This document shows, in pieces, positions 11,904 through 57,990 of a DNA stretch of 64,000 bases; the stretch's first letter is position 1; every line of letters begins with the position of its first letter. A program made the position numbers and the translations under genes. This DNA comes from Pseudomonas syringae (lineage in GTDB: Bacteria; Pseudomonadota; Gammaproteobacteria; Pseudomonadales; Pseudomonadaceae): assembly GCF_023278085.1 (NCBI RefSeq), contig NZ_CP066265.1, forward strand, positions 4,234,001-4,298,000, read 5' to 3'. The notes below the pieces were generated by a model. It was not told the origin of the DNA. It did not search any database and saw only the letters and a program-made list of their open reading frames with translations.

Positions 11904-12991
11904 TGCTGAGTCTTCACGCCTTCGACGAACCAGTCCATTTTCCACAGGTCGGGATCGGACAATTGCTGACCCGCCGCGACGCGTTCCTTGCCATCGCGAT
12001 CCGCCAGCGGGCCGCTGTAAATGATCTTCTTGCCGGCCAGCAATTCGGCACGCTCAGCCTCGATTTTCTGGCGATCTTCGGCAGAGATGATCGGGTCGCT
12101 GGTCAGCTTGATATCGGTGCCACCCTGCTGCATCGACAGCAACGCGCCGTTGGCCGAAGGCGTCCAGTTACCGGCCATGACTTTCTTGAGCTCCGGCCCC
12201 AGGAAACGGTCCCAGACCCACAAGGAAGAACAGACGGTCGCTTTTGGTGCGAATTCGCTCAGGTCGCGGTGGTGACCGGTGCCATGAATGCCGCGCTCCT
12301 GGGCGACGATCTGCGGTGTCGGGCTGTCGACGTGCTGACCGACCACGTCCACGCCGTTGTCGATCAGCGCCATGGTCGCGGCGCGTTCCTTGACCGGGTC
12401 ATTCCACGCGCCGGTATAGATCACGTTGACCGTGGCCTTGGGGTTGATCTGCCTGGCTCCGAGCTCGTAGGCATTGATGGTCCAGTTGACCTGACCGAAG
12501 GGGTTGGCGGCGACGAAGCCCAGTTTGCCGGTCTTCGATGCCGCGCCTGCCGCCATGCCGCACAGGTACTGGCTTTCATAGGTGCGGCCGTAAAACGATT
12601 CGAGATTGGCGGCGTTGGTGGTGCCCGAACCGTTGAGGAACGCGACATCCGGGTATTTCTTCGCCAGCGTGAGGAAGGTATCGGAATAGCCGAAGGCGGT
12701 GCCGACGATGATATTCGCGCCGCGTGCGATGAGTCGGTCGACCACTGGCGTGATGGCCGCAGCGTTCTCGGGAACGCTCTCCACGAACTGGATTTTTGTG
12801 TCCAGATCCTTTTCCAGCTTCAGTCGTGCCTCATCGAACGCCTGAGTCCAGCCGCCGTCATTGCGCGGGCTGATGTACACCATGGCGATTTTCGCCGGGC
12901 CCTTGAGTGTCAGACCTTCAGCCTGAGCGAGGCTGACGGTCCCGAACGCGACGGCCGCACACAATGTCCCGGGCAACAGTTTCTTGTACAT
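11900..12991 (-). CDS. BMP family ABC transporter substrate-binding protein
   Basis: Periplasmic binding protein of 363 residues, Bmp/PnrA-like family, first gene of the transporter operon. A classical signal peptide (MYKKLLPGTLCAAVAFGTVSLAQA) precedes the mature domain that starts KGPAKIAMVYISPRNDGGW. There is no lipobox, unlike many Gram-positive homologues. Family members bind nucleosides. Upstream lie a sigma54-like promoter, a RutR-like operator and an NtrC-like site in the same order as at rutA, so pyrimidine or nucleoside uptake under nitrogen control is likely. Confidence 0.88.
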   Translation of the reverse strand: MYKKLLPGTLCAAVAFGTVSLAQAEGLTLKGPAKIAMVYISPRNDGGWTQAFDEARLKLEKDLDTKIQFVESVPENAAAITPVVDRLIARGANIIVGTAFGYSDTFLTLAKKYPDVAFLNGSGTTNAANLESFYGRTYESQYLCGMAAGAASKTGKLGFVAANPFGQVNWTINAYELGARQINPKATVNVIYTGAWNDPVKERAATMALIDNGVDVVGQHVDSPTPQIVAQERGIHGTGHHRDLSEFAPKATVCSSLWVWDRFLGPELKKVMAGNWTPSANGALLSMQQGGTDIKLTSDPIISAEDRQKIEAERAELLAGKKIIYSGPLADRDGKERVAAGQQLSDPDLWKMDWFVEGVKTQQ

Positions 12992-22294: not shown

Positions 22295-23671
22295 TCAACG
22301 CACGCCTTCCTGACGCAACGCATTGGGCGAGAAGTCGCTGGTGCCCGCCGTGAAACCGAACTCGTAAGCCTTTTTCTCTTCGTTTTTCATGCCAAGGGCC
22401 ACGTAGCGGCCGGATTGCAGGTCATACAGGGTTTCGACGGCATACCACGGTACTTGCTTGTCGTAGTAGTTTTCCGAATGCGCTTCGGCGACCCGCCACA
22501 GCTGACCACGCCCGTCGTAATGGTCGATCACCGCCGCCTGCCAAGTGTCTTCGTCGATGAAGAAGTCGCGCTTGGCGTAGATATGCCGCTGACCTTCCTT
22601 GAGCGTTGCAGTCACGTGCCAGACCCGGCGCAGCTCGTAACGGGTCAGGTCCTGATTGATATGCCCGGCCTTGATGATGTCGGCGTATTTCAGCGTCGGA
22701 TCGTCCAGCTTGTGGCTGTTGGAGGCGATGTACATTTCCTGCTTGCCGATCAGCTTCCAGTCATAGCGATCCGGGGCGCCGTTGTACATATCGAGGTTGT
22801 CTGAGGTACGCAGACCGTCGGACGCCGTACCCGGCCCGTCGTAGGACACCTGCGGCGCACGCCGCACGCGGCGCTGACCGGCGTTATACAGCCATGCCGA
22901 GCGAGGTTCGGCCACCTGATCGAGGGTTTCATGCACCAGCAGCACGCCCCCGGCCAGCCGCGCCGGAGCCGTGACTTCCTGCTTGAAGTAGAACAACACG
23001 TTGCCCGGATTTTTCGGATCGAAATCCCTCATCTTGTCGCGGAACACGAACTGATCGGAGAAATACACCAGGCTGTAAGAGCCATTGGCTTGCGGCGTCG
23101 CCTGCGTGACCAGACGTTTCACGCTGCCACCCCGGTAACGGGTGATGTGGTTCCAGATGACTTCGACACCGCTGGCCGGAATCGGGAACGGGATGGCCGT
23201 GTCGAAATTCTCCAGACCGCTGCCGCCACCGACCAGTTTGGTGGTAGTCGCGTTTTTCCTGATCGCGGCGAACACTTCATCCGGCACCGTAGCGCCGCGA
23301 TGAGTCGGGTAGACCGGAATGCGGTAGCTGTCCGGGTAACGCTTGAACATCGCGTATTGACCCGGTGCCAGCTTGTCCTTGTACTGCTCGACGTTGGCCG
23401 CGGTAATGATGAACAGCGGTTTTTCACTGGCATACGGGTTGGCCAGGAACCCTTTGCTGTCGACCGCACCGGCATTTTTCGGCATCGGGGTCCAGGCAGA
23501 AATCGTATTGGCCGCATTACCGGCTTTTTCCGCCCCCATCGGGGTCAGGGAGGTGCCCAGCTTTGCCGCTTCGGACGCGGATACCGCCGCCATCACTCCG
23601 GTTGCCAGCAACGACATTCCCAGTACACCGGCTTGCAACAGACCTTTTGTTATTTTCATGTTCGTCGTCAT
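22295..23671 (-). CDS. DUF1329 periplasmic/outer-membrane lipid-handling protein
   Basis: Exported protein of about 458 residues, DUF1329 family, with a signal peptide ending near VMAAVSASEA. DUF1329 proteins have a LolB-like fold in related systems and nearly always occur with DUF1302 proteins; together they are thought to handle hydrophobic substrates across the envelope. The start could be the ATG at 23671 or the one four codons later (23659), which has better spacing from AGGA. It is downstream of the DUF1302 gene by 15 bp, so it is in an operon with it. Confidence 0.85.
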   Translation of the reverse strand: MTTNMKITKGLLQAGVLGMSLLATGVMAAVSASEAAKLGTSLTPMGAEKAGNAANTISAWTPMPKNAGAVDSKGFLANPYASEKPLFIITAANVEQYKDKLAPGQYAMFKRYPDSYRIPVYPTHRGATVPDEVFAAIRKNATTTKLVGGGSGLENFDTAIPFPIPASGVEVIWNHITRYRGGSVKRLVTQATPQANGSYSLVYFSDQFVFRDKMRDFDPKNPGNVLFYFKQEVTAPARLAGGVLLVHETLDQVAEPRSAWLYNAGQRRVRRAPQVSYDGPGTASDGLRTSDNLDMYNGAPDRYDWKLIGKQEMYIASNSHKLDDPTLKYADIIKAGHINQDLTRYELRRVWHVTATLKEGQRHIYAKRDFFIDEDTWQAAVIDHYDGRGQLWRVAEAHSENYYDKQVPWYAVETLYDLQSGRYVALGMKNEEKKAYEFGFTAGTSDFSPNALRQEGVR

Positions 23672-46952: not shown

Positions 46953-48222
<1,270 letters not shown>

Positions 48223-48317: not shown

Positions 48318-48379
48318 TTGACTTGTACAGCTACACACCTATGATGAAGACAAGTTGTACAGAGCGCCTTATCTGTACA
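48318..48379 (+). promoter_or_regulatory. Promoter with exact TGTACA-N12-TGTACA dyad
   Basis: TTGACT (48318-48323), 16 bases, TATGAT (48340-48345) forms a good sigma70-type core. TGTACA occurs at 48324-48329, 48356-48361 and 48374-48379; the last two are exactly 12 bases apart, the spacing known for LitR-type operators. It drives the operon that encodes the LitR-like regulator itself. Confidence 0.65.
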
Positions 48380-48400: not shown

Positions 48401-49363
48401 ATGCTCATGCCCGCAATCGAAAAACCGAAACTCGGTATCAGTGCCTGCCTGATGGGCGCCGAAGTCCGTTTCAATGGTGGACACAAAGAGTCTCATTTGT
48501 GCACCCAGGCGTTGAGCAAGTATTTCGATTTCGTCCAGGCATGCCCTGAAGTCGCGATCGGCATGGGCATCCCGCGTGAGCCGATCAGACTGGTCGGTGA
48601 TGCAGACAACCCCAAGGCGCTCGGCACGGTCAATCGCGACCTGGATGTGACCGCAGCACTGGCTGAATACGGTGTACAGATGGCCGATGAGCTGGGCGAT
48701 ATCTGCGGTTACATCTTTATGCAGAAGTCCCCGTCGTGTGGTCTGGAGCGGGTCAAGGTCTACCGTGAAAACGGTGCGCCGGTCGATGGCGGCGGGCGCG
48801 GCATCTATGCACAGGCTTTTTGCGAGCGCCATCCGAACCTGCCCGTCGAGGAAGACGGGCGTCTGAATGACGCCGTGCTGCGCGAGAACTTCGTGACCCG
48901 CGTGTTTGCCTACGCCGCCTGGCAGCAGTTGTTGAAAGACGGCATCACGCGTCGCGCCCTGACCGAATTCCACTCGCGCTACAAATATCAGCTGATGGCC
49001 AACGATCCGGTGCAGTACAAGGCACTGGGCAAAATGCTTGGCAGCATGGGCCGCAGTGATCCTAACGAAATCGCCCCGCTGTATTTCAGCGAGCTGATGG
49101 CGGCATTGAAAAAGTGCGCCACCCGCAGCACTCACACCAATGTCCTGCAACACCTGTGCGGCTACCTCAAGCAGACCATCAGCAGTGAAGACAAGCAGGA
49201 AATCCAGCAAGTGATCAGCCAGTACCATCAAGGCATCGTGCCGCTGATCGTACCGCTGACCCTGCTCAAGCATCATTTTCGCCAACATCCGGACCCGTAT
49301 GTGGCGCTTCAGGTGTACATGCAACCCCATCCGGAAAATCTCAGCCTGCGAAATGCGATTTGA
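48401..49363 (+). CDS. DUF523-DUF1722 fusion protein (YbgA-like)
   Basis: About 320 residues. The N-terminal DUF523 part has KLGISACLMGAEVRFNGGHK and MQKSPSCGLERVKVY, with paired Cys. The C-terminal DUF1722 (YbgA) part has HSRYKYQLMANDP and NVLQHLCGYLK. Homologues are next to phr in many proteobacteria. Function unknown, possibly a thiol or Fe-S chemistry role. Start ATG 48401 after GAGG; ATG at 48407 also possible. First gene of the light-type operon. Confidence 0.88.
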   Translation: MLMPAIEKPKLGISACLMGAEVRFNGGHKESHLCTQALSKYFDFVQACPEVAIGMGIPREPIRLVGDADNPKALGTVNRDLDVTAALAEYGVQMADELGDICGYIFMQKSPSCGLERVKVYRENGAPVDGGGRGIYAQAFCERHPNLPVEEDGRLNDAVLRENFVTRVFAYAAWQQLLKDGITRRALTEFHSRYKYQLMANDPVQYKALGKMLGSMGRSDPNEIAPLYFSELMAALKKCATRSTHTNVLQHLCGYLKQTISSEDKQEIQQVISQYHQGIVPLIVPLTLLKHHFRQHPDPYVALQVYMQPHPENLSLRNAI

Positions 49364-49368
49364 TACTC

Positions 49369-50283
49369 ATGAATGAAGTAGAAACAGCTACCGATCCAGA
49401 GGTGCCGGGCGAATGGCTGCCCATCCGGGAAGTTGCACGGCAGACCGGCGTCAATGCTGTGACCCTGCGCGCCTGGGAGCGCCGTTATGGTTTGATCGTT
49501 CCGCACCGCACGGCCAAGGGGCATCGGCTGTATTCGGAAGAACATGTCCAGCGGGTCATGAAAATCCTGACGTGGCTCAACCGTGGCGTGTCGGTCAGCC
49601 AGGTCAAAAACCTGATCGACGACAACCGTGCGGACGCCCTGCCCCCGACCAATGACTGGGACGCCCTGCGTCAGACGCTGTTGGCAGCGATTGGCGAACT
49701 GGCCGAACGTCGCGTGGATGACGTATTCAATCAGGCCATGGCGCTGTATCCGCCGCGCACCCTGTGTGAACAACTGCTGCTGCCACTGCTGGCCGAGCTG
49801 GAACAGCGCTGGCAAGGCAAGTTCGGTGCTCAACTGGAGCGCACGTTTTTCTATTCATGGCTGCGCAGCAAGTTCGGCGCGCGCATCTATCACAACAACC
49901 GTCAGCTCAATGGGAGCCCGTTGCTGCTGGTCAATCAGTCCGATCTGCCGCTTGAACCGCACCTGTGGCTCGCGGCGTGGCTGGTCAGCAGCGCCGACTG
50001 CCCGGTCGAGGTGTTCGACTGGCCGCTGCCGGTCGGTGAACTGGCGCTGGCCGCCGAATACCTGAAGCCTCGCGGCATCCTGCTGTACTCCAGCAAGGCA
50101 CTGAATATCGCCCAACTCCCCCGTTTGCTGGCCAATATCACCTGCCCTGTGGTGCTCGGTGGACCAACGGTACAGATCCATAAAGCCGATCTGCTCGTAC
50201 AGGCAAGCGAGATAGCTGGCTTGACCCTTGCCAACGACGCGCTCAGCGCTCAGATCGAGCTGGGCAAGCTCGGACTTATCTAA
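49369..50283 (+). CDS. LitR-like MerR-family light-response regulator (class II type)
   Basis: MerR regulator of 304 residues: HTH domain (WLPIREVARQTGVNAVTLRAW, residues 17-37 region) followed by a helical and a Rossmann-like domain corresponding to the B12-binding part of CarH/LitR. The cobalamin motifs W-x9-EH and DxHxxG are not seen: the first reads WQGKFGAQLER. It therefore should not bind adenosylcobalamin, like class II LitR of P. putida. Encoded between the DUF523/DUF1722 gene and phr; TGTACA dyads lie upstream of its operon. Confidence 0.85.
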   Translation: MNEVETATDPEVPGEWLPIREVARQTGVNAVTLRAWERRYGLIVPHRTAKGHRLYSEEHVQRVMKILTWLNRGVSVSQVKNLIDDNRADALPPTNDWDALRQTLLAAIGELAERRVDDVFNQAMALYPPRTLCEQLLLPLLAELEQRWQGKFGAQLERTFFYSWLRSKFGARIYHNNRQLNGSPLLLVNQSDLPLEPHLWLAAWLVSSADCPVEVFDWPLPVGELALAAEYLKPRGILLYSSKALNIAQLPRLLANITCPVVLGGPTVQIHKADLLVQASEIAGLTLANDALSAQIELGKLGLI

Positions 50284-50292
50284 GGACTTCTC

Positions 50293-51741
50293 ATGCAACT
50301 GATCTGGCTGCGTAGCGACCTGCGCGTTCACGACAACACCGCCCTGACCGCCGCCCTGCAGCGTGGTCCGACGCTGGCGGTGTACCTGCTCAGCCCTGCG
50401 CAGTGGCGAAGTCATGACGATGCCGACTGTAAAGTCGATTTCTGGCTGCGCAACCTGGTCGAGCTGGAAAAAGCCCTTGGCAAACTGAACGTGCCGCTGC
50501 TGATTCGCGAGGCTGACACCTGGGACGAGGCACCTGAGGTGCTGTCGACCCTGTGCAGGGAGTTCAAGGTCGAGGGCCTGCACCTCAATCAGGAATACGG
50601 CATCAACGAAACCAACCGTGACCTGGCCGTGCACAAGGCGCTTGAAGACGACGGTGTGCATTTCAACAGTTACCTGGATCAACTGCTGTTCAAGCCGGGC
50701 AGCATCCTGACCAAGTCCGGCAACTACTTTCAGGTATTCACCCAGTTCAAGAAGGCCTGCTACACCCGGCTGCACGCCGCCATGCCGCCTCTCGTGCGTA
50801 CCCCCGCTGCACAGCAGGCGCTGTCGATAAAAAGCGACCGGGTTCCGCACCAGGTGAAGGGTTTTGCCACGCCGCCGGATGCGTTACGCGCCCTGTGGCC
50901 GGCTGGCGAGGGTGAGGCCAGTCGCCGCATGGACGCTTTCGCAGACGAGCAGATCAGCTACTACAAGGACGAGCGGGACTTCCCGGCCAAGCCCGGCACC
51001 AGCCAGCTTTCGGCCTATCTCGCCGCCGGGGTCATTTCGCCCCGCCAGTGCCTGCACGCTGCCTTGAGCAGCAATCATGGGGAATTCGAGACCGGCGACG
51101 TGGGCACCGTGACCTGGATCAACGAACTGTTGTGGCGAGAATTCTACAAGCACACGCTGGTAGGCTACCCTCGTGTTTCACGTCATCGCGCTTTCAGACC
51201 CGAAACCGAAGCACTGCAATGGCGCAACGCCCCTGAAGAGCTGTTGGCATGGCAGGAAGCGCGCACCGGCCTGCCGATCATTGACGCCGCCATGCGTCAA
51301 TTGCTGGAAACCGGATGGATGCACAATCGGCTAAGGATGGTCGTTGCCATGTTTCTCACGAAAAACCTGTTGATCGACTGGCGGGAAGGCGAGCGCTTTT
51401 TCATGCGCCACCTGATCGACGGCGACCTGGCGTCGAATAACGGCGGCTGGCAGTGGAGCTCGTCCACCGGCACCGACTCGGCCCCGTATTTCCGTATCTT
51501 CAACCCCTTGTCACAATCGGAAAGATTCGACCCCGAGGGCGTGTTCATCAAGCGCTGGCTGCCGGAGCTGGCAGGCCTGAACAAAAAGCAGATTCATGAC
51601 CCCGCCTCTGTCGGCGGGCTATTTGGCGTAGCCGATTACCCGACACCCATCGTCGACTTGAGCAAAAGCCGCGCCCGCGCGCTGGCAGCATTCAAGGCGC
51701 TGCCAACCCGCGTGCCCGCCGCAGGGGCTGACCATGGCTGA
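50293..51741 (+). CDS. phrB: Deoxyribodipyrimidine photolyase
   Basis: Class I CPD photolyase of 482 residues repairing UV cyclobutane dimers with blue light. An N-terminal antenna-binding domain (LIWLRSDLRVHDNTAL) is followed by the FAD domain: TWINELLWREFYKH, TGLPIIDAAMRQL, NGGWQWSSSTGTDSAPYFRI. The last is the canonical FAD/electron-transfer region. Nine bases after the LitR-like gene; its 3' end overlaps the next gene by eight. Confidence 0.96.
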   Translation: MQLIWLRSDLRVHDNTALTAALQRGPTLAVYLLSPAQWRSHDDADCKVDFWLRNLVELEKALGKLNVPLLIREADTWDEAPEVLSTLCREFKVEGLHLNQEYGINETNRDLAVHKALEDDGVHFNSYLDQLLFKPGSILTKSGNYFQVFTQFKKACYTRLHAAMPPLVRTPAAQQALSIKSDRVPHQVKGFATPPDALRALWPAGEGEASRRMDAFADEQISYYKDERDFPAKPGTSQLSAYLAAGVISPRQCLHAALSSNHGEFETGDVGTVTWINELLWREFYKHTLVGYPRVSRHRAFRPETEALQWRNAPEELLAWQEARTGLPIIDAAMRQLLETGWMHNRLRMVVAMFLTKNLLIDWREGERFFMRHLIDGDLASNNGGWQWSSSTGTDSAPYFRIFNPLSQSERFDPEGVFIKRWLPELAGLNKKQIHDPASVGGLFGVADYPTPIVDLSKSRARALAAFKALPTRVPAAGADHG

Positions 51742-52156
51742 CTTCCTGCACAGCTTCGCTCAGCGCTTTGCCGCACTGAACAAGGACAACCTTGATCAGG
51801 TTGCCCAGCTGTACAGCGAAGACGTGTCGTTCAGCGACCCGCTGCACGACATTCATGGCCTGCCTGCCATGCAGCGTTATTTCGCCGAGCTGTACGCCAA
51901 CGTTCGGGATCTGCATTTCGATTTTCACGCCTTCGACGAGGTCCGGCCCGGCGAAGGCTATCTGGTCTGGACCATGAGCTACTCGCACCCACGCCTGGCC
52001 GCTGGCCAGACCATCCGGGTCGAAGGCTGTTCGCACCTCAAATGGCATGAAAAGGTTTACCGGCACCGCGACTATTTCGATGCCGGTGCGCTGCTCTACG
52101 AACATCTGCCCATCATGGGCCGAGTCATCAATTGGCTGAAGAAGAGGTTGGGATGA
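51734..52156 (+). CDS. SnoaL/NTF2-like protein
   Basis: Protein of 140 residues with an NTF2-like fold pattern (RFAALNKDNLDQVAQLYSED, SDPLHDIHGLPAMQRYFAEL, YRHRDYFDAGALLYEHLP). Such proteins may bind small hydrophobic molecules or act as isomerases; role here unknown. Starts inside the end of phr and its stop overlaps the SDR gene, so it is translationally coupled on both sides. Confidence 0.85.
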   Translation: MADFLHSFAQRFAALNKDNLDQVAQLYSEDVSFSDPLHDIHGLPAMQRYFAELYANVRDLHFDFHAFDEVRPGEGYLVWTMSYSHPRLAAGQTIRVEGCSHLKWHEKVYRHRDYFDAGALLYEHLPIMGRVINWLKKRLG

Positions 52157-52941
52157 GCACTCCTGGCGCACGACGTATCTGGTTGACCGGCGCCAGCAGT
52201 GGCATCGGTCTCGCTTTGGCAAAGGAATTACTCGACGCCGGGCATCGGCTGGCATTGACGGCCAGAACCCTGGAACCGCTACAGAATCTGGCGACCCTCT
52301 ACCCGGAGCAGGTGCTGCTGGTCACCGGTGATATCACTGATGGCTTGCAAGTGAAATCCATGGGCGACCGCATCGCTCAGGAATGGGGCGCTCTGGACAC
52401 TGCGATCCTCAATGCCGGGACTTGCGAATATATTGACGCCCGCAACTTCGAAGCGGCCATGGTCGAGCGCGTAGTGCGCACCAATCTGCTGGCCAGCAGT
52501 TACTGCATTCAGGAAGCGCTACCGTTGTTGCGCAAGGGCGAGCAGCCGCACCTGGTCGGTGTCGCCAGCGCAGTGACGTTCCTGGCACTGCCTCGCGCAG
52601 AAGCCTACGGCGCGTCGAAAGCCGGGCTGCGCTATCTGTTTGAAGCCCTGCGCATTGATCTGGCCAGCGAAAACATCGATGTAACCATCGTCAGCCCTGG
52701 GTTTGTAGATACCCCGCTGACGCAAAAAAACGATTTTCCAATGCCGATGCGCTGGCCCGTCGAAAAGGCCGCACAGTACATTGCCGAGAACCTCAACCGC
52801 GCACGGCGACCGCTTGAAATCGCCTTCCCGACGGCCTTCATCCTCAGTATGAAACTGTTGGCCCTGTTCCCGGCGCGCGTCAGATTCGCCATCGGCAAGC
52901 GCATGGCCCGCAACGAAACGGGCCATAAGGACAACCAATGA
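52153..52941 (+). CDS. Short-chain dehydrogenase/reductase
   Basis: Classical SDR of 262 residues. Cofactor motif TGASSGIGLALAKEL, NAG motif AILNAGTCEY, catalytic Ser in GVASAVTFLAL context and Tyr-x3-Lys in AEAYGASKAG. NADP or NAD oxidoreductase; substrate unknown. In related light or singlet-oxygen gene sets an SDR accompanies FAD oxidase, DUF1365 and CFA-like genes. Start overlaps the SnoaL-like stop as ATGA. Confidence 0.9.
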   Translation: MSTPGARRIWLTGASSGIGLALAKELLDAGHRLALTARTLEPLQNLATLYPEQVLLVTGDITDGLQVKSMGDRIAQEWGALDTAILNAGTCEYIDARNFEAAMVERVVRTNLLASSYCIQEALPLLRKGEQPHLVGVASAVTFLALPRAEAYGASKAGLRYLFEALRIDLASENIDVTIVSPGFVDTPLTQKNDFPMPMRWPVEKAAQYIAENLNRARRPLEIAFPTAFILSMKLLALFPARVRFAIGKRMARNETGHKDNQ

Positions 52942-54185
52942 AAGTCGCAGTTATTGGCAGCGGGATCGCCGGGTTGACCAGTGCCTATCTGCTCAATCGC
53001 AAGCATGAGGTCACGGTATTCGAGTCCTCGGACTGGATTGGCGGGCATACCCACACCGTCGATGTGCAGGTCGAGGGTCGCGCCTATGCCATCGACACCG
53101 GTTTCATTGTGTTCAATGACTGGACCTACCCGAATTTCATTCGCCTGCTGGGCCAGCTGGGCGTGGGCTTCAAACCCGCTGAAATGAGCTTTTCGGTGCA
53201 CGATCCGCGCACTGGCGTCGAATATAACGGCAACAACCTCAACAGCCTGTTTGCCCAACGCAGCAACCTGCTGTCGCCAAGGTTCTGGGGCATGCTGCGC
53301 GATATCCTGCGCTTCAACCGCCAGTCCGTCGAGGACCTGGAAAACCAGCGTATTGCGGCGGACACCACGCTCGGCGAGTACTTGAAAAAAGGCGCTTACG
53401 GGCAACGCTTCGTCGACCACTACATCGTGCCGATGGGCGCGGCGATCTGGTCAATGTCGCTGGCGGAAATGCTCGGCTTTCCGCTGCAATTCTTCGTGCG
53501 CTTCTTCAAGAACCACGGCCTGCTGTCGGTCACCAACCGGCCGCAATGGTGCGTGATAGAAGGCGGCTCCAGAAGTTATGTCGAGCCCCTGACTGCGTCG
53601 TTCCGGGAGCGAATTCGCCTGTCATGCCCGGTCACCCGCGTGGAACGCGACAGCAAAGGTGTCACGGTACATAGCGCCGAGGGCAGTGAGCGTTTCGACC
53701 AGGTGGTGTTTGCCTGCCATAGCGATCAGGCCCTGGCATTGCTGGCCGAACCGTCGAGCGCCGAACAATCGGTGCTTGGCGCGCTGCGCTACGCCGAAAA
53801 CGATGTGGTGTTGCATACTGATACCCGTCTGCTGCCCGACCGCCGTCTGGCCTGGGCCAGCTGGAACTATCGTCTTGGCGGCGATGCTAAACAGTTGGCA
53901 GCCGTCACGTACGACATGAACATCCTGCAAGGCATCGACAGCGACACCACGTTCTGCGTGAGTCTGAATCAGACTGCGGCTATCGACCCGGCGACCATTC
54001 TTGGTCGCTACCGCTATTCGCATCCGCAATACAGCCTTGAGGCGATAGCCGCGCAAGCGCGCTGGCAGGAAATCAATGGCGTCGACCACACCTGGTATTG
54101 CGGTGCTTACTGGGCTAACGGCTTCCACGAAGACGGCGTCGTCAGTGGCTTGCGCGTGGCTCAGGCGTTCGGTGAAACCCTGTGA
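52938..54185 (+). CDS. FAD-dependent amine-oxidase-like protein
   Basis: Flavoprotein of 415 residues with N-terminal KVAVIGSGIAGLTSAYLL and HEVTVFESSDWIGGHTHTV, plus C-terminal ending NGFHEDGVVSGLRVAQAFG. The family is annotated as amine oxidase or NAD(P)/FAD protein and is constant in CFA/DUF1365 clusters. A role in fatty-acid desaturation or oxidation has been proposed in related systems; direct activity is unknown. ATGA overlaps on both sides. Confidence 0.9.
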   Translation: MKVAVIGSGIAGLTSAYLLNRKHEVTVFESSDWIGGHTHTVDVQVEGRAYAIDTGFIVFNDWTYPNFIRLLGQLGVGFKPAEMSFSVHDPRTGVEYNGNNLNSLFAQRSNLLSPRFWGMLRDILRFNRQSVEDLENQRIAADTTLGEYLKKGAYGQRFVDHYIVPMGAAIWSMSLAEMLGFPLQFFVRFFKNHGLLSVTNRPQWCVIEGGSRSYVEPLTASFRERIRLSCPVTRVERDSKGVTVHSAEGSERFDQVVFACHSDQALALLAEPSSAEQSVLGALRYAENDVVLHTDTRLLPDRRLAWASWNYRLGGDAKQLAAVTYDMNILQGIDSDTTFCVSLNQTAAIDPATILGRYRYSHPQYSLEAIAAQARWQEINGVDHTWYCGAYWANGFHEDGVVSGLRVAQAFGETL

Positions 54186-54982
54186 ACAGCGCCCTCTACA
54201 GTGGTTGGATCAGCCACCGTCGATTTTCGCCACGCTCGCATGCGTTCACCTATCGCATTGGTCTGCTCTATCTGGATCTGGATGAGCAAGAGCACGTATT
54301 CGGGCTCTCGCCGCTGGCGGGAAACGGACGTTTCGCCGCGTTTTCATTCCGCGAGCGCGACTATCTGCCGAAACTGACCGGGCGTGGCGTGCCGCTGATA
54401 GAAGCGGCACGCGAGCTGGCAGGCAAAGCGCTGGGGCATATGCCGCTGGGCCGTGTCTGCCTGCTGACGCAAGCGCGCAGTTGGGGGTTGTCGTTCAACC
54501 CGGTCAGTTTTTTCTACTGCCATGAGGTAGACGGTACGCTGGCCGCCATCCTCTGCGAAGTCACCAATACGCCGTGGGGCGAGCGCTACAGTTATGTACT
54601 GCCAGCGACGGGTGAAGGCCATCAGCATTTTGCCGTGGCCAAAGCTTTTCATGTCTCACCGTTTCTGCCCCGCGACCTTGAGTACCGCATGAGCTTCAGC
54701 CAGCCTGCGGAGCGTATCGGGGTGCATATGGCGGACTGGCAGGGCGATCTGAAGATGTTCGACGCCACGCTCAACCTGACTCGGCAAGACCTCAATCGCC
54801 AGACGTTGCACCGTCACCTGATGGCGTTCCCGTGGATGACTGCGAAAACCTGTCTGGCCATCTATTGGCAAGCCATGCGCTTGCTGGTCAAACGCATTCC
54901 TATTTTTTCCCATCAGGCCGCCGACGGCGAATACCGTGCCGCCGCCGCGCAACCCAAGGACTCGCACCATGAAAAGCAGTAG
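54182..54982 (+). CDS. DUF1365 family protein
   Basis: Protein of 266 residues, DUF1365, marked by HRRFSPRSHAFTYRIGLLYLDLDE-type start (cut: SHAFTYRIGLLYLDL) and SWGLSFNPVSFFYCHEVDG. Almost always encoded between an FAD oxidase and a CFA synthase-like gene; function not known. Starts with GTG at 54182, overlapping the oxidase stop. The 3' end overlaps the CFA-like gene by 14 bases. Confidence 0.88.
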   Translation: MNSALYSGWISHRRFSPRSHAFTYRIGLLYLDLDEQEHVFGLSPLAGNGRFAAFSFRERDYLPKLTGRGVPLIEAARELAGKALGHMPLGRVCLLTQARSWGLSFNPVSFFYCHEVDGTLAAILCEVTNTPWGERYSYVLPATGEGHQHFAVAKAFHVSPFLPRDLEYRMSFSQPAERIGVHMADWQGDLKMFDATLNLTRQDLNRQTLHRHLMAFPWMTAKTCLAIYWQAMRLLVKRIPIFSHQAADGEYRAAAAQPKDSHHEKQ

Positions 54983-56237
54983 CAGCAGTTTTTCTGCCAA
55001 TCTGGGGACCAATGGTCTGACTGCAGATATCCTGCGCCGAGGCGTTTTACGGCAGGTGGCAGGCCTGCGCAACGGTCAGTTGGTGGTCGTTGAAGGAGGC
55101 CGACGCCATATGTTCGGCAAGAGCGATGCGCTGATCCAGGCCGAAGTCCACATCCTGGATTCGGCGGCCTGGGGCATGATCGCCAGCAGTGGCTCGATCG
55201 GTGCTGGCGAGGCGTTCATCCATGGTTACTGGACCACGCCTGACCTGACAGCGGTGGTGCGGGTATTTGTCAGCAATCTGGATGTTCTCGACGCAATGGA
55301 AGGCGGTGTGGCGCGGCTGACCCGGCCTTTGATTCACGGTCTGCACTGGCTTAACCGCAACACCCGCAAAGGCTCGCAGAAAAACATCGCGGCTCACTAT
55401 GACCTGGGCAACACACTGTTTGAACAGTTTCTCGATCCGACCATGATGTATTCGGCGGCACAGTTCCTGAATGAAAACGACACACTTGAACAGGCGCAAC
55501 TGAACAAGCTGGAGCGTATCTGCCAGAAGCTGGCCCTGAAACCCGAAGATCACCTGCTGGAAATCGGCACCGGCTGGGGCAGTATGGCCATTTACGCTGC
55601 GCAGCATTATGGCTGCCAGGTGACCACCACCACGCTGTCCAAAGAGCAGTTCGCTTACACGCAGCAGAAGCTGGTCGAACTGGGCCTGCAGGATCGCGTG
55701 ACGTTGCTGCTGACCGACTACCGGGACCTGACCGGTGAGTACGACAAGCTGGTGTCCATCGAAATGATCGAGGCGGTCGGCCACCGTTTCCTGCCAACCT
55801 ACTTCAAGCAATGCGCCAGCTTGCTGAAGAGCAACGGCATGATGCTGCTGCAGGCAATCACCATTCGCGAACAACGCTATACCCAGGCCAAGCGCAATGT
55901 GGACTTCATCCAGCGCTATATTTTCCCCGGCGGCGCGCTGCCCTCGGTGGCAAAGATGCTCGAAATCGTCGGCAATGACACCGATATGAACCTGCTGCAC
56001 ATGGAAGACTTCGGCCTGCATTACGCCCGCACATTGCGCCTGTGGTACGACAATTTCAGAAACGCCCACGGCAAACTGACCGAACTGGGTTACGACGAGT
56101 ACTTTTTGCGGCTTTGGGAGTTTTACCTGTGCTACTGCGAAGGGGGCTTCCTGGAGCGGACCATCGGCACCGCGCAACTGCTGCTGGCCAAGCCGGACGC
56201 GTTACGCGAACCACTGCTTGGGCGCTTCAATGCTTAA
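54969..56237 (+). CDS. CFA synthase-like SAM methyltransferase, altered bicarbonate site
   Basis: Protein of 422 residues in the cyclopropane-fatty-acid synthase family, acting on phospholipid acyl chains with SAM (LEIGTGWGSM, residues 198-207). In E. coli Cfa bicarbonate is held by C139, E239, H266 and Y317. Here the aligned Cys is Ala163 (YSAAQF) and the aligned His is Gln295 (LLQAIT), while Glu268 and Tyr360 are kept. The enzyme may methylate rather than cyclopropanate, as enzymes making methylated or furan fatty acids do. That is inference. Confidence 0.85.
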   Translation: MKSSSSSFSANLGTNGLTADILRRGVLRQVAGLRNGQLVVVEGGRRHMFGKSDALIQAEVHILDSAAWGMIASSGSIGAGEAFIHGYWTTPDLTAVVRVFVSNLDVLDAMEGGVARLTRPLIHGLHWLNRNTRKGSQKNIAAHYDLGNTLFEQFLDPTMMYSAAQFLNENDTLEQAQLNKLERICQKLALKPEDHLLEIGTGWGSMAIYAAQHYGCQVTTTTLSKEQFAYTQQKLVELGLQDRVTLLLTDYRDLTGEYDKLVSIEMIEAVGHRFLPTYFKQCASLLKSNGMMLLQAITIREQRYTQAKRNVDFIQRYIFPGGALPSVAKMLEIVGNDTDMNLLHMEDFGLHYARTLRLWYDNFRNAHGKLTELGYDEYFLRLWEFYLCYCEGGFLERTIGTAQLLLAKPDALREPLLGRFNA

Positions 56238-56730
56238 AACCATCGCCAACGCGCTACTTTTTCAGATCGGCTGGTTTGCCTGTGTGCTGGGCGGCAACAG
56301 CTATTGGTTGCTGATTGCACTGGGCGTGCTGGTCATCCACTTTGTGTGGATCAGTTCGTGGGCCGCAGAAGGTCGACTGGTGATTACCGTTACGCTGATC
56401 GGCGCATTGATCGACAGCCTGCTGATGACTCTGGGCGTGTTCGACTTCGGCGTCAGTGGCTACCTGTTGCCCTTGTGGCTGGCTTTGTTGTGGGCGGTCA
56501 TGGCCACTACGCTTAATCATTGCCTGGCCTGGACTGCCAGACCGCTGTGGCGTGCAGCCGTTCTTGGCGCTATCGGCGGCCCGATGTCGTACTATGCCGG
56601 CTCGCAACTGGCGCAGGTTCACCTTCCACTTGGAATGTGGCCGAGCATGCTGCTGCTGGGGCTGGTCTGGGCAGGTGTTTTCCCCCTGTTGCAATGGCTG
56701 GCCGGCCGCACAACGCGCCCTTCAGCCTGA
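56230..56730 (+). CDS. DUF2878 membrane protein
   Basis: Integral membrane protein of 166 residues with about five hydrophobic segments; DUF2878 family pattern NALLFQIGWFACVLGGNSYW near the N-terminus. Function unknown. Consistently next to CFA-like and DUF1365 genes. Starts at ATG 56230 inside the end of the CFA-like gene (8-base overlap), so coupled translation is likely. Confidence 0.85.
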   Translation: MLKTIANALLFQIGWFACVLGGNSYWLLIALGVLVIHFVWISSWAAEGRLVITVTLIGALIDSLLMTLGVFDFGVSGYLLPLWLALLWAVMATTLNHCLAWTARPLWRAAVLGAIGGPMSYYAGSQLAQVHLPLGMWPSMLLLGLVWAGVFPLLQWLAGRTTRPSA

Positions 56731-56747
56731 CACTCGGGAGACCCGCT

Positions 56748-57062
56748 CTGGACGCCACACTTATTCCGCTCGCCGATATTCACAGCGAAACGGAAGTCAC
56801 CTGCTCAACCTGTGCGGCCTGCTGCTGCCAACTGGAAGTGATGCTGATCACCGACACGGGCGTGCCTGAGCGCTATATCGATAACGACGAATGGGGTGGC
56901 GAGGTGATGTTGCGGCTGGATGACGGCTGGTGCGCAGCGCTGGATCGCAACACCATGATGTGCACGATCTACGAAAAGCGTCCCTTGATCTGTCGTGAGT
57001 TCGAAGCAGGAGCGGAAGATTGCCTGAACGAACGCAAAGGGATTGCGACGGCTTATCTTTGA
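56748..57062 (+). CDS. YkgJ-type cysteine-cluster protein, probable CTG start
   Basis: Protein of about 104 residues with CSTCAACCC near the N-terminus and C-terminal MCTIYEKRPLICREFEAG, the YkgJ/UPF0153 zinc/iron-binding pattern. No ATG, GTG or TTG in frame fits the domain; the likely start is CTG at 56748 with GGGAG 8 bases upstream. The open frame goes further upstream but overlaps DUF2878 in another frame. Last gene of the light-type operon. Confidence 0.75.
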   Translation: MDATLIPLADIHSETEVTCSTCAACCCQLEVMLITDTGVPERYIDNDEWGGEVMLRLDDGWCAALDRNTMMCTIYEKRPLICREFEAGAEDCLNERKGIATAYL

Positions 57063-57471: not shown

Positions 57472-57990
57472 TCAGAACGGCATCTTGTAATGCAGGGCGT
57501 AGCTTTCGATACCGTCGTTCGGCTGCTTGATGCCGGCGTTGGAGTAATGAGTGGCACGGATGCCGACTTCATGTCCGCCAGCGAAGCGCAGGCCGAAACC
57601 GATGCGGTCTTCGAAGTTGAATGCCGAGCCGAACTTGCGATCTTCAACCTGAGTGTTGGAGAACACCGAAACACCGATACCCGCTTCGACGTAAGGCTTC
57701 ACGCTGCTGTTGCCGAATTCGTACACCAGAACCGGGGAGAACGACAGGCTGTGGTTATCCTTGTAGTCCTTGCCATCCCAGTAGGTGTAGGCGCCGTCCC
57801 AATAACCGGTCAGACGGCCAATGTCGCTTTGCAGCCAGGTCTTATCCCAGTCGAACTGCACACCCAAGCGATAAGTCATGGTGGACTCGCCGGTCTGCCC
57901 AACCGAAAATTCAACGCCGTCGGCCTGCGCCAGTGAAGCCTGGCCTGCCATGAGGGCCGAGAGCACGGCCAGGCAAAAGAGTCTCTTCAT
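57472..57990 (-). CDS. pagL: Lipid A 3-O-deacylase PagL
   Basis: Outer-membrane beta-barrel of 172 residues with signal peptide (AVLSALMAGQASLAQA). Removes the 3-O-acyl chain of lipid A. The catalytic His-Ser pair is in ATHYSNAGIKQPNDGIE, and the C-terminus ends in Phe (HYKMPF). It is next to murI as in P. aeruginosa PA4661-PA4662. PagL modifies LPS in response to envelope stress in P. aeruginosa. Confidence 0.9.
   Translation of the reverse strand: MKRLFCLAVLSALMAGQASLAQADGVEFSVGQTGESTMTYRLGVQFDWDKTWLQSDIGRLTGYWDGAYTYWDGKDYKDNHSLSFSPVLVYEFGNSSVKPYVEAGIGVSVFSNTQVEDRKFGSAFNFEDRIGFGLRFAGGHEVGIRATHYSNAGIKQPNDGIESYALHYKMPF

What the first reader, a model, noticed from the sequence alone, without database searches (positions are those of the whole stretch)
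51734..57062. Light-type operon for unusual fatty-acid chemistry with an atypical CFA-like enzyme
SnoaL-like, SDR, FAD oxidase, DUF1365, CFA-like, DUF2878 and YkgJ-type genes overlap or nearly abut after phr. In the CFA-like enzyme two expected bicarbonate ligands are Ala163 and Gln295. Together with an oxidase and a reductase this may make methylated, furan or otherwise modified acyl chains that quench singlet oxygen, rather than cyclopropanes.
Basis: partly seen in the sequence, partly recalled or inferred. Interest (0 to 1): 0.75.

Follow-up and report, generated by a model that had tools for sequence, protein, structure and literature searches.

The report
Light-switched furan fatty acid operon
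A Pseudomonas genome carries a gene set, probably switched on by light, whose three core enzymes match a known pathway that turns ordinary membrane fats into furan fats thought to soak up light-made reactive oxygen; it is a new member of a known kind, and its odd "cyclopropane" enzyme bears a clear two-residue mark shared by its furan-pathway relatives.

Summary
In detail: the seven genes at 51734-57062 overlap by 4-14 bases (last start unsure), and the CFA-like protein has Ala163 and Gln295 where E. coli Cfa has Cys139 and His266. They belong to a ten-gene operon from about 48401 (YbgA-like, class II LitR, photolyase first), behind a promoter with the same -35, -10 and spacing as the mapped light promoter of Pseudomonas mendocina. 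FAD oxidase, DUF1365 and CFA-like proteins are UfaD, UfaO and UfaM, the published furan fatty acid pathway. So the furan reading is well supported but largely known; a light-induced operon with ufaM is published for P. mendocina. New here: in a tree made without those two sites, the Gln-bearing proteins form one clade, the UfaM branch (90 distinct, all Ala/Ser/Gly at the Cys site; 41 other CMAS proteins: all His, 40 Cys), which may explain a methyl-alkene product in place of a cyclopropane. An SDR-SnoaL gene pair travels with ufaDOM (18 of 40 loci, 0 of 40 controls). Neither an ordinary Cfa nor a short-LOV partner for LitR was found in this genome. No chemistry was tested.

The parts
48318..48345 (+). 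promoter TTGACT-N16-TATGAT
   Evidence: only match in window, 0 of 100 shuffles; same -35/-10 and spacing as mapped light promoter P6650
48356..48379 (+). palindromic LitR-type box TGTACA-N12-TGTACA (a further TGTACA lies at 48324-48329)
   Evidence: only perfect match of TRTACA-N12-TGTACA in the 5.6 Mb genome; motif from PMC9758184
48401..49363 (+). YbgA-like (2-thiour_desulf + DUF1722), first gene of operon; start TTG 48398 or ATG 48401/48407
49369..50283 (+). class II LitR-like regulator (MerR HTH + B12-binding_2 only)
50293..51741 (+). phr, deoxyribodipyrimidine photolyase
   Evidence: NF007955 over its cut-off; PF03441, PF00875
51734..52156 (+). SnoaL-like protein
   Evidence: PF12680 9.1e-16; Asp35, Asp113, Asp116 invariant in 32 sequences
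52153..52941 (+). short-chain dehydrogenase/reductase
   Evidence: PF00106 4.8e-39; Ser139, Tyr152, Lys156 invariant in 31 sequences
52938..54185 (+). UfaD-type FAD protein
   Evidence: PF01593; UfaD-like gene beside DUF1365 in 40 of 40 loci
54182..54982 (+). UfaO-type DUF1365 protein (GTG start)
   Evidence: PF07103 2.7e-75; AlphaFold model mean pLDDT 89.2
54969..56237 (+). UfaM-type CFA-like methyltransferase, 422 aa
   Evidence: PF02353 3.2e-88; falls in the UfaM clade
55455..55457 (+). codon of Ala163 (E. coli Cys139 site)
55851..55853 (+). codon of Gln295 (E. coli His266 site)
56230..56730 (+). DUF2878, hydrophobic (probably membrane) protein
   Evidence: PF11086 3.6e-45; GRAVY 1.06
56694..57062 (+). 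YkgJ/CxxCxxCC protein, start unsure
   Evidence: PF03692 1e-10; tblastn found it in none of the loci held except L072, which is the same gene

Best explanation
The operon 48401-57062 is a LitR-controlled, light-induced stress operon whose core, ufaD-ufaO-ufaM, makes mono-methyl furan fatty acids on existing membrane phospholipids. UfaM adds a methyl group from SAM to cis-vaccenoyl (and probably 16:1) chains. Because the pocket that holds the catalytic bicarbonate in Cfa is changed (Cys to Ala, His to Gln), the proton is lost from the chain, not from the new methyl, giving an 11-methyl-12-trans alkene in place of a cyclopropane. UfaD desaturates it to the conjugated methyl-diene, and UfaO inserts an O2-derived oxygen to close the furan. 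The furan then acts as a sacrificial trap for singlet oxygen while photolyase repairs DNA. Shown by sequence: gene families, order, promoter, residue changes. Shown elsewhere for relatives: enzyme steps and light induction. Inferred: product and function in this genome, and the residue-to-product link.
For: CMAS, Amino_oxidase and DUF1365 genes side by side; UfaM, UfaD and UfaO of these types do exactly these three steps in R. sphaeroides and R. palustris. DUF1365 occurs in 187 of 397 Pseudomonadota genomes; in 40 loci picked from those, a UfaD-like gene is present beside it in 40 and a UfaM-like gene in 33; five of the seven without one come from a family (f63) whose layout resembles R. sphaeroides, with the CFA-like gene elsewhere near phr. 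A tree of 135 CMAS proteins with both diagnostic columns left out puts the 94 Gln proteins, window included, in one clade, support 0.89; of 90 distinct ones 76 have Ser, 13 Ala, 1 Gly at the Cys139 site, against 40 Cys and 1 Ser in the 41 His proteins. Halomonas UfaM expressed in E. coli gave 11-methyloctadec-12-enoate. Promoter and boxes match those of the P. mendocina operon, where phrB and ufaM rise 25-33 fold in light.
Against: I saw no report of a furan fatty acid in a Pseudomonas: of 28 held papers with 'furan fatty acid' and 'Pseudomonas' I read parts of two (PMC12089945, PMC10940516) and saw the rest as listings only. The window UfaM was compared with relatives, not with the characterised R. 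sphaeroides or R. palustris sequences, which I did not obtain. MmaA1, for which a methyl-trans-alkene product is recalled (its role is called unsettled in PMC3245277, passages), keeps Cys and His and has Asp for the Glu, so the Ala/Gln pair is not the only route to such a product. No short LOV, the known anti-repressor of a class II LitR, was found in this genome. The exact promoter was found in 1 of 9 other loci tested.
Confidence: 0.84

Rival explanations
1. The CFA-like enzyme is this genome's cyclopropane synthase: it is the only full-length CMAS protein found there, and the two changed sites are tolerated.
For: The own genome has one full CMAS hit; the second is a partial 39-bit hit. The Glu, Ile and Tyr sites are kept. 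In the Halomonas work cyclic fatty acids were seen in the ufaM strain too, though E. coli has its own cfa.
Against: It sits in the UfaM clade beside ufaD and ufaO; 30 of 30 Pseudomonas Cfa-type proteins (the 30 best-scoring loci from 59 genomes) keep Cys and His.
Confidence: 0.05
2. The operon makes a modified chain other than the 9M5-type furan (methyl-alkene or methyl-diene end product, other ring position), with DUF1365 doing a related but different oxidation.
For: Window UfaO is only 26-41% identical to the 33 rows from named loci outside Pseudomonas; the UfaO cofactor was unknown in 2020.
Against: Positions such as Tyr138, Lys154, Ser159-Pro160-Phe161 and Tyr168 are invariant in 94 DUF1365 proteins; the UfaD neighbour is present in 40 of 40 loci sampled.
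Confidence: 0.08
3. On regulation only (compatible with the best explanation): light control here runs not through a short LOV but through the genome's LOV histidine kinase, another receptor, or LitR itself.
For: In the own genome the LOV-domain search gave nine matches, all in frames of 461 aa or more, one of them a LOV-kinase-like protein; 31 of 39 other Pseudomonas genomes have a LOV-like frame of 149-184 aa. Only one LitR-type protein; two further hits are weak.
Against: The 149-184 aa frames were not read one by one; no expression data.
Confidence: 0.5

Closest known systems
Pseudomonas mendocina NBRC 14162 pmlR1 operon (PME6650-PME6610; PMC9758184)
   Same: Nine light-induced genes: pmlR1, phrB, SDR (PME6630), FAD oxidoreductase (PME6625), ufaM and four hypothetical genes; promoter TTGACT-N16-TATGAT with TRTACA boxes. 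That the hypothetical genes match YbgA, SnoaL, DUF1365 and DUF2878 is inferred from order, not checked.
   Different: Window has a tenth, YkgJ-type gene; in its genome one LitR and no short LOV were found, whereas P. mendocina has a second LitR beside a short LOV.
Rhodobacter sphaeroides RSP1091-1087 plus RSP2143-2144 (UfaD, UfaO, UfaM; PMC7380195, PMC7074977)
   Same: UfaD-UfaO side by side, an SDR in the same operon; a photolyase gene (RSP2143) next in number to ufaM (RSP2144).
   Different: Under sigma-E/ChrR, not LitR; ufaM elsewhere; a symporter and a hypothetical gene in the operon.
Rhodopseudomonas palustris RPA2569-2571 (PMC7380195)
   Same: UfaM, UfaO, UfaD genes consecutive and sufficient for 9M5-FuFA.
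   Different: R. palustris also has FufM for a dimethyl furan; in the window's genome no second full CMAS protein was found, but FufM itself was not searched for.
Halomonas sp. YLGW01 ufaM (PMC12089945)
   Same: Gammaproteobacterial ufaM consecutive with ufaD and ufaO; UfaM made 11-methyloctadec-12-enoate in E. coli.
   Different: Light control not described in the parts I read (1 and 2 of 4).
Cyclopropane fatty acid synthase Cfa (E. coli 6BQC; P. aeruginosa PA5546)
   Same: Protein family and SAM chemistry; Glu, Ile and Tyr sites kept.
   Different: Cys and His sites hold Ala and Gln.

Membership tests
UfaM (fatty acyl methylase) | CMAS domain and place in the clade of CFA-like proteins found beside UfaD/UfaO, tree made without the two diagnostic columns | tested here: met
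UfaM (fatty acyl methylase) | genetic link to UfaD and UfaO | tested here: met
   window order D-O-M; UfaM-like gene in 33 of 40 DUF1365 loci
UfaM (fatty acyl methylase) | makes 11Me-12t-18:1 from cis-vaccenoyl lipid | not testable with these tools
   needs FAME GC-MS
UfaD | FAD-binding amine-oxidase-like protein beside UfaO | tested here: met
UfaD | desaturates 11Me-12t-18:1 | not testable with these tools
   needs enzyme assay
UfaO | DUF1365 domain beside UfaD | tested here: met
UfaO | O2-dependent furan formation | not testable with these tools
   needs enzyme assay
UfaO | a fold shared with a solved structure | tested here: inconclusive
Cfa (cyclopropane synthase) | bicarbonate site Glu239, His266, Tyr317, with Cys139 and Ile268 (these two recalled) | tested here: not met
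   His to Gln295 and Cys to Ala163; the other three kept
class II LitR light operon | MerR HTH plus B12-binding_2 without the B12-binding domain | tested here: met
   MerR models and PF02607 only
class II LitR light operon | promoter with TRTACA boxes | tested here: met
class II LitR light operon | short LOV anti-repressor in the genome (shown for PmlR2 of P. mendocina) | tested here: not met
   none found by motif or LOV-domain search
class II LitR light operon | light-induced transcription | not testable with these tools
   shown for P. mendocina

The most novel reading that the evidence does not exclude
Probability: 0.07. Interest if true: 0.8.

Novelty: new member of a known kind. Interest (0 to 1): 0.4.

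Why it matters
It explains an apparently atypical cyclopropane synthase as the first enzyme of the furan fatty acid pathway and gives a two-residue test that sorts UfaM from Cfa, which source names mix up (many close relatives are called 'cyclopropane-fatty-acyl-phospholipid synthase'). It turns the question why one enzyme makes a ring and its sister a methyl-alkene into a two-residue swap experiment. It predicts light-induced furan lipids in syringae-type pseudomonads, and points to a genome where the known partner of LitR was not found.

Tried and rejected

Rows dropped: L114, L144 and L156 were left out of the UfaO alignment because their stretches contain a stop. The 40 loci were picked by hand from the 187 genomes with a hit: one per family, except three from the window's own family and five from f63. 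The residue counts cover CMAS proteins that pass phmmer E 1e-30 against window UfaM or E. coli Cfa; weaker CMAS hits such as L098 were not counted. Six of the 54 named loci gave no UfaM-like protein at that cut-off.
Full report
What is there. The stretch 51734-57062 codes, in order and on the + strand, for a SnoaL-like protein, an SDR, an FAD amine-oxidase-like protein, a DUF1365 protein, a CFA-like methyltransferase, a DUF2878 protein and a CxxCxxCC (YkgJ-type) protein. Neighbours overlap by 4 to 14 bases; the start of the last gene is unsure. Upstream, with gaps of 5 and 9 bases, lie a YbgA-like gene, a MerR regulator with a B12-binding_2 domain and no B12-binding domain (class II LitR type), and a photolyase. 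So the unit is ten genes, about 48401-57062. The genome (G000, 5.6 Mb) is taken to be a Pseudomonas: the closest UfaM proteins, 92%, come from P. syringae pv. primulae and P. viridiflava.

Light promoter. TTGACT-N16-TATGAT occurs once in the window, at 48318-48345, and in none of 100 shuffles. The light promoter P6650 of Pseudomonas mendocina has exactly TTGACT-N16-TATGAT, with a start site mapped 48 bp before its ATG (of PMC9758184 I read the abstract, Introduction, Discussion and part 1 of 3 of Results). The window's promoter region carries three TGTACA boxes, two of them forming TGTACA-N12-TGTACA at 48356-48379, the only perfect match of TRTACA-N12-TGTACA in the whole genome (with one mismatch allowed, 14 forward and 13 reverse matches against 5 and 5 for the reversed control). 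In P. mendocina a nine-gene unit with phrB, an SDR, an FAD oxidoreductase and a gene already called ufaM is predicted to be one light-induced operon, with 25 to 33-fold induction of phrB and ufaM. Of nine other loci tested, one has the promoter and seven have at least one TRTACA.

What the enzymes are. In R. sphaeroides, UfaM (CFA-like) makes 11Me-12t-18:1 from cis-vaccenoyl chains, UfaD (FAD protein) makes the 10t,12t-diene, and UfaO, a DUF1365 protein, forms the furan with oxygen from O2; the three suffice (Results and Discussion of PMC7380195 read). The window has this D-O-M set side by side. DUF1365 is found in 187 of 397 Pseudomonadota genomes. In 40 loci picked from those 187, a UfaD-like gene is present in 40, beside DUF1365, and a UfaM-like gene in 33, an SDR in 27, SnoaL in 19, DUF2878 in 16, phr in 14, LitR in 9. 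Five of the seven without UfaM come from one family (f63). The one of these read gene by gene (L068) shows UfaD, UfaO (250 aa), a transporter, a 191-aa protein and an SDR (245 aa); R. sphaeroides has UfaD, RSP1090 (250 aa), a symporter, RSP1088 (186 aa) and RSP1087, an SDR of 245 aa. In eight f63 genomes the Gln-type CFA-like gene lies on the same strand after a phr-like frame, directly in seven; in the eighth (L084) that frame ends some 600 bases before it. RSP2143 is phrA and RSP2144 the CFA-like gene. This links the residue mark below to the characterised type, although the R. sphaeroides protein itself was not in hand. A Halomonas UfaM expressed in E. coli gave 11-methyloctadec-12-enoate (parts 1 and 2 of 4 of PMC12089945 read).

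The residue mark. Aligned with E. coli Cfa, the window protein has Ala163 for Cys139 and Gln295 for His266 and keeps Glu239, Ile268 and Tyr317. Glu, His and Tyr are the side chains that hold the bicarbonate in Cfa (passages of PMC11387697); that Cys139 and Ile268 also line the site is recalled. All 33 UfaM-like proteins beside DUF1365 in the first set carry Ala/Ser/Gly and Gln, as do 48 of 48 in the 54 named loci (a second CMAS protein in L152 is of another branch, with Cys and His). Thirty of 30 Pseudomonas Cfa-type proteins carry Cys and His (the 30 best-scoring loci from 59 genomes). A tree of 135 proteins, made without the two columns, puts all 94 Gln proteins in one clade, support 0.89. 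After removing duplicates, 90 Gln proteins have Ser 76, Ala 13, Gly 1 at the Cys site, and 41 His proteins have Cys 40, Ser 1. I found no statement of this mark in what I read: the main text of PMC7380195 does not contain the word bicarbonate, and the listings (20 of 31 shown; 10 of 60 shown) name no such paper by title.

How it may work. In Cfa a protonated-cyclopropane state is thought to be deprotonated by bicarbonate. In UfaM the product, an 11-methyl-12-trans-alkene, means that the proton is lost from C13. Loss of Cys and His from the bicarbonate pocket fits this; it is inference. Mycobacterial relatives support only a looser form of the idea: CmaA1, MmaA2, PcaA and UmaA keep Cys and His; MmaA4, named hydroxymycolate synthase, has Gln for His but keeps Cys; MmaA1, recalled to make a methyl-trans-alkene, keeps both and has Asp for Glu. 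A paper calls the role of MmaA1 unsettled (PMC3245277, passages).

The accessory genes. An SDR and a SnoaL gene adjacent on the same strand occur in 18 of 40 DUF1365 loci and in 0 of 40 control stretches, two each from 20 of the same genomes; an SDR of any place occurs in 27 of 40 against 7 of 40. The pair stands in several orientations relative to ufaDOM. The SDR triad and three Asp of SnoaL are invariant in the sets aligned (31 and 32). In R. sphaeroides the operon's other three genes, the SDR RSP1087 among them, are not needed for furan synthesis. So the pair may act downstream of the furan; the renewal cycle given as novel case is speculation. The YkgJ gene was found in none of the loci held except the same gene in L072.

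Two oddities of this genome. No ordinary Cfa was found: one full CMAS protein, the window's, and one partial 39-bit hit. And no short LOV was found: motif searches gave one LOV-kinase-like protein and one chance hit; a LOV-domain search of the own genome gave nine matches, all in frames of 461 aa or more, whereas 31 of 39 other Pseudomonas genomes have a LOV-like frame of 149-184 aa (these frames were not read singly). In P. mendocina a short LOV is the anti-repressor of the class II LitR PmlR2. How this LitR senses light is therefore open; the LOV kinase is the first candidate.

UfaO fold. The AlphaFold model of window UfaO, from 56 sequences, has mean pLDDT 89.2: mostly strands, with helices near the C-terminus. 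Matches are weak and barrel-like. No cofactor can be claimed.

Verdict. New, as far as I could see, are the two-residue mark, the SDR-SnoaL link and the two absences in this genome. The product itself remains untested.

Noticed in passing
46953-47003, gene 47024-48010: A second LitR-like site (TATACC-N12-TGTACA, one mismatch, plus another TGTACA at 46998) just upstream of another Amino_oxidase-type FAD protein and a DUF2389 gene: a possible second light promoter.
   Followed up: partly
G000:C1:2692046-2692357 (L190): LOV-kinase-like protein (557-aa frame, read by eye as LOV, kinase and receiver parts), the only LOV protein found in the genome and a candidate light input for LitR.
   Followed up: partly
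L041:12535-13575, L152:1301-2365: A different CMAS branch (His kept, Phe at the Ile268 site) lies next to DUF2878 genes, so DUF2878 is linked to more than one kind of lipid methyltransferase.
   Followed up: no
57472-57990 (-): PagL-type lipid A deacylase gene directly downstream on the other strand.
   Followed up: no
12874-12990 and 22729-22788: Pairs of TGTACA about 110 and 60 bases apart elsewhere in the window; possible further LitR sites.
   Followed up: no
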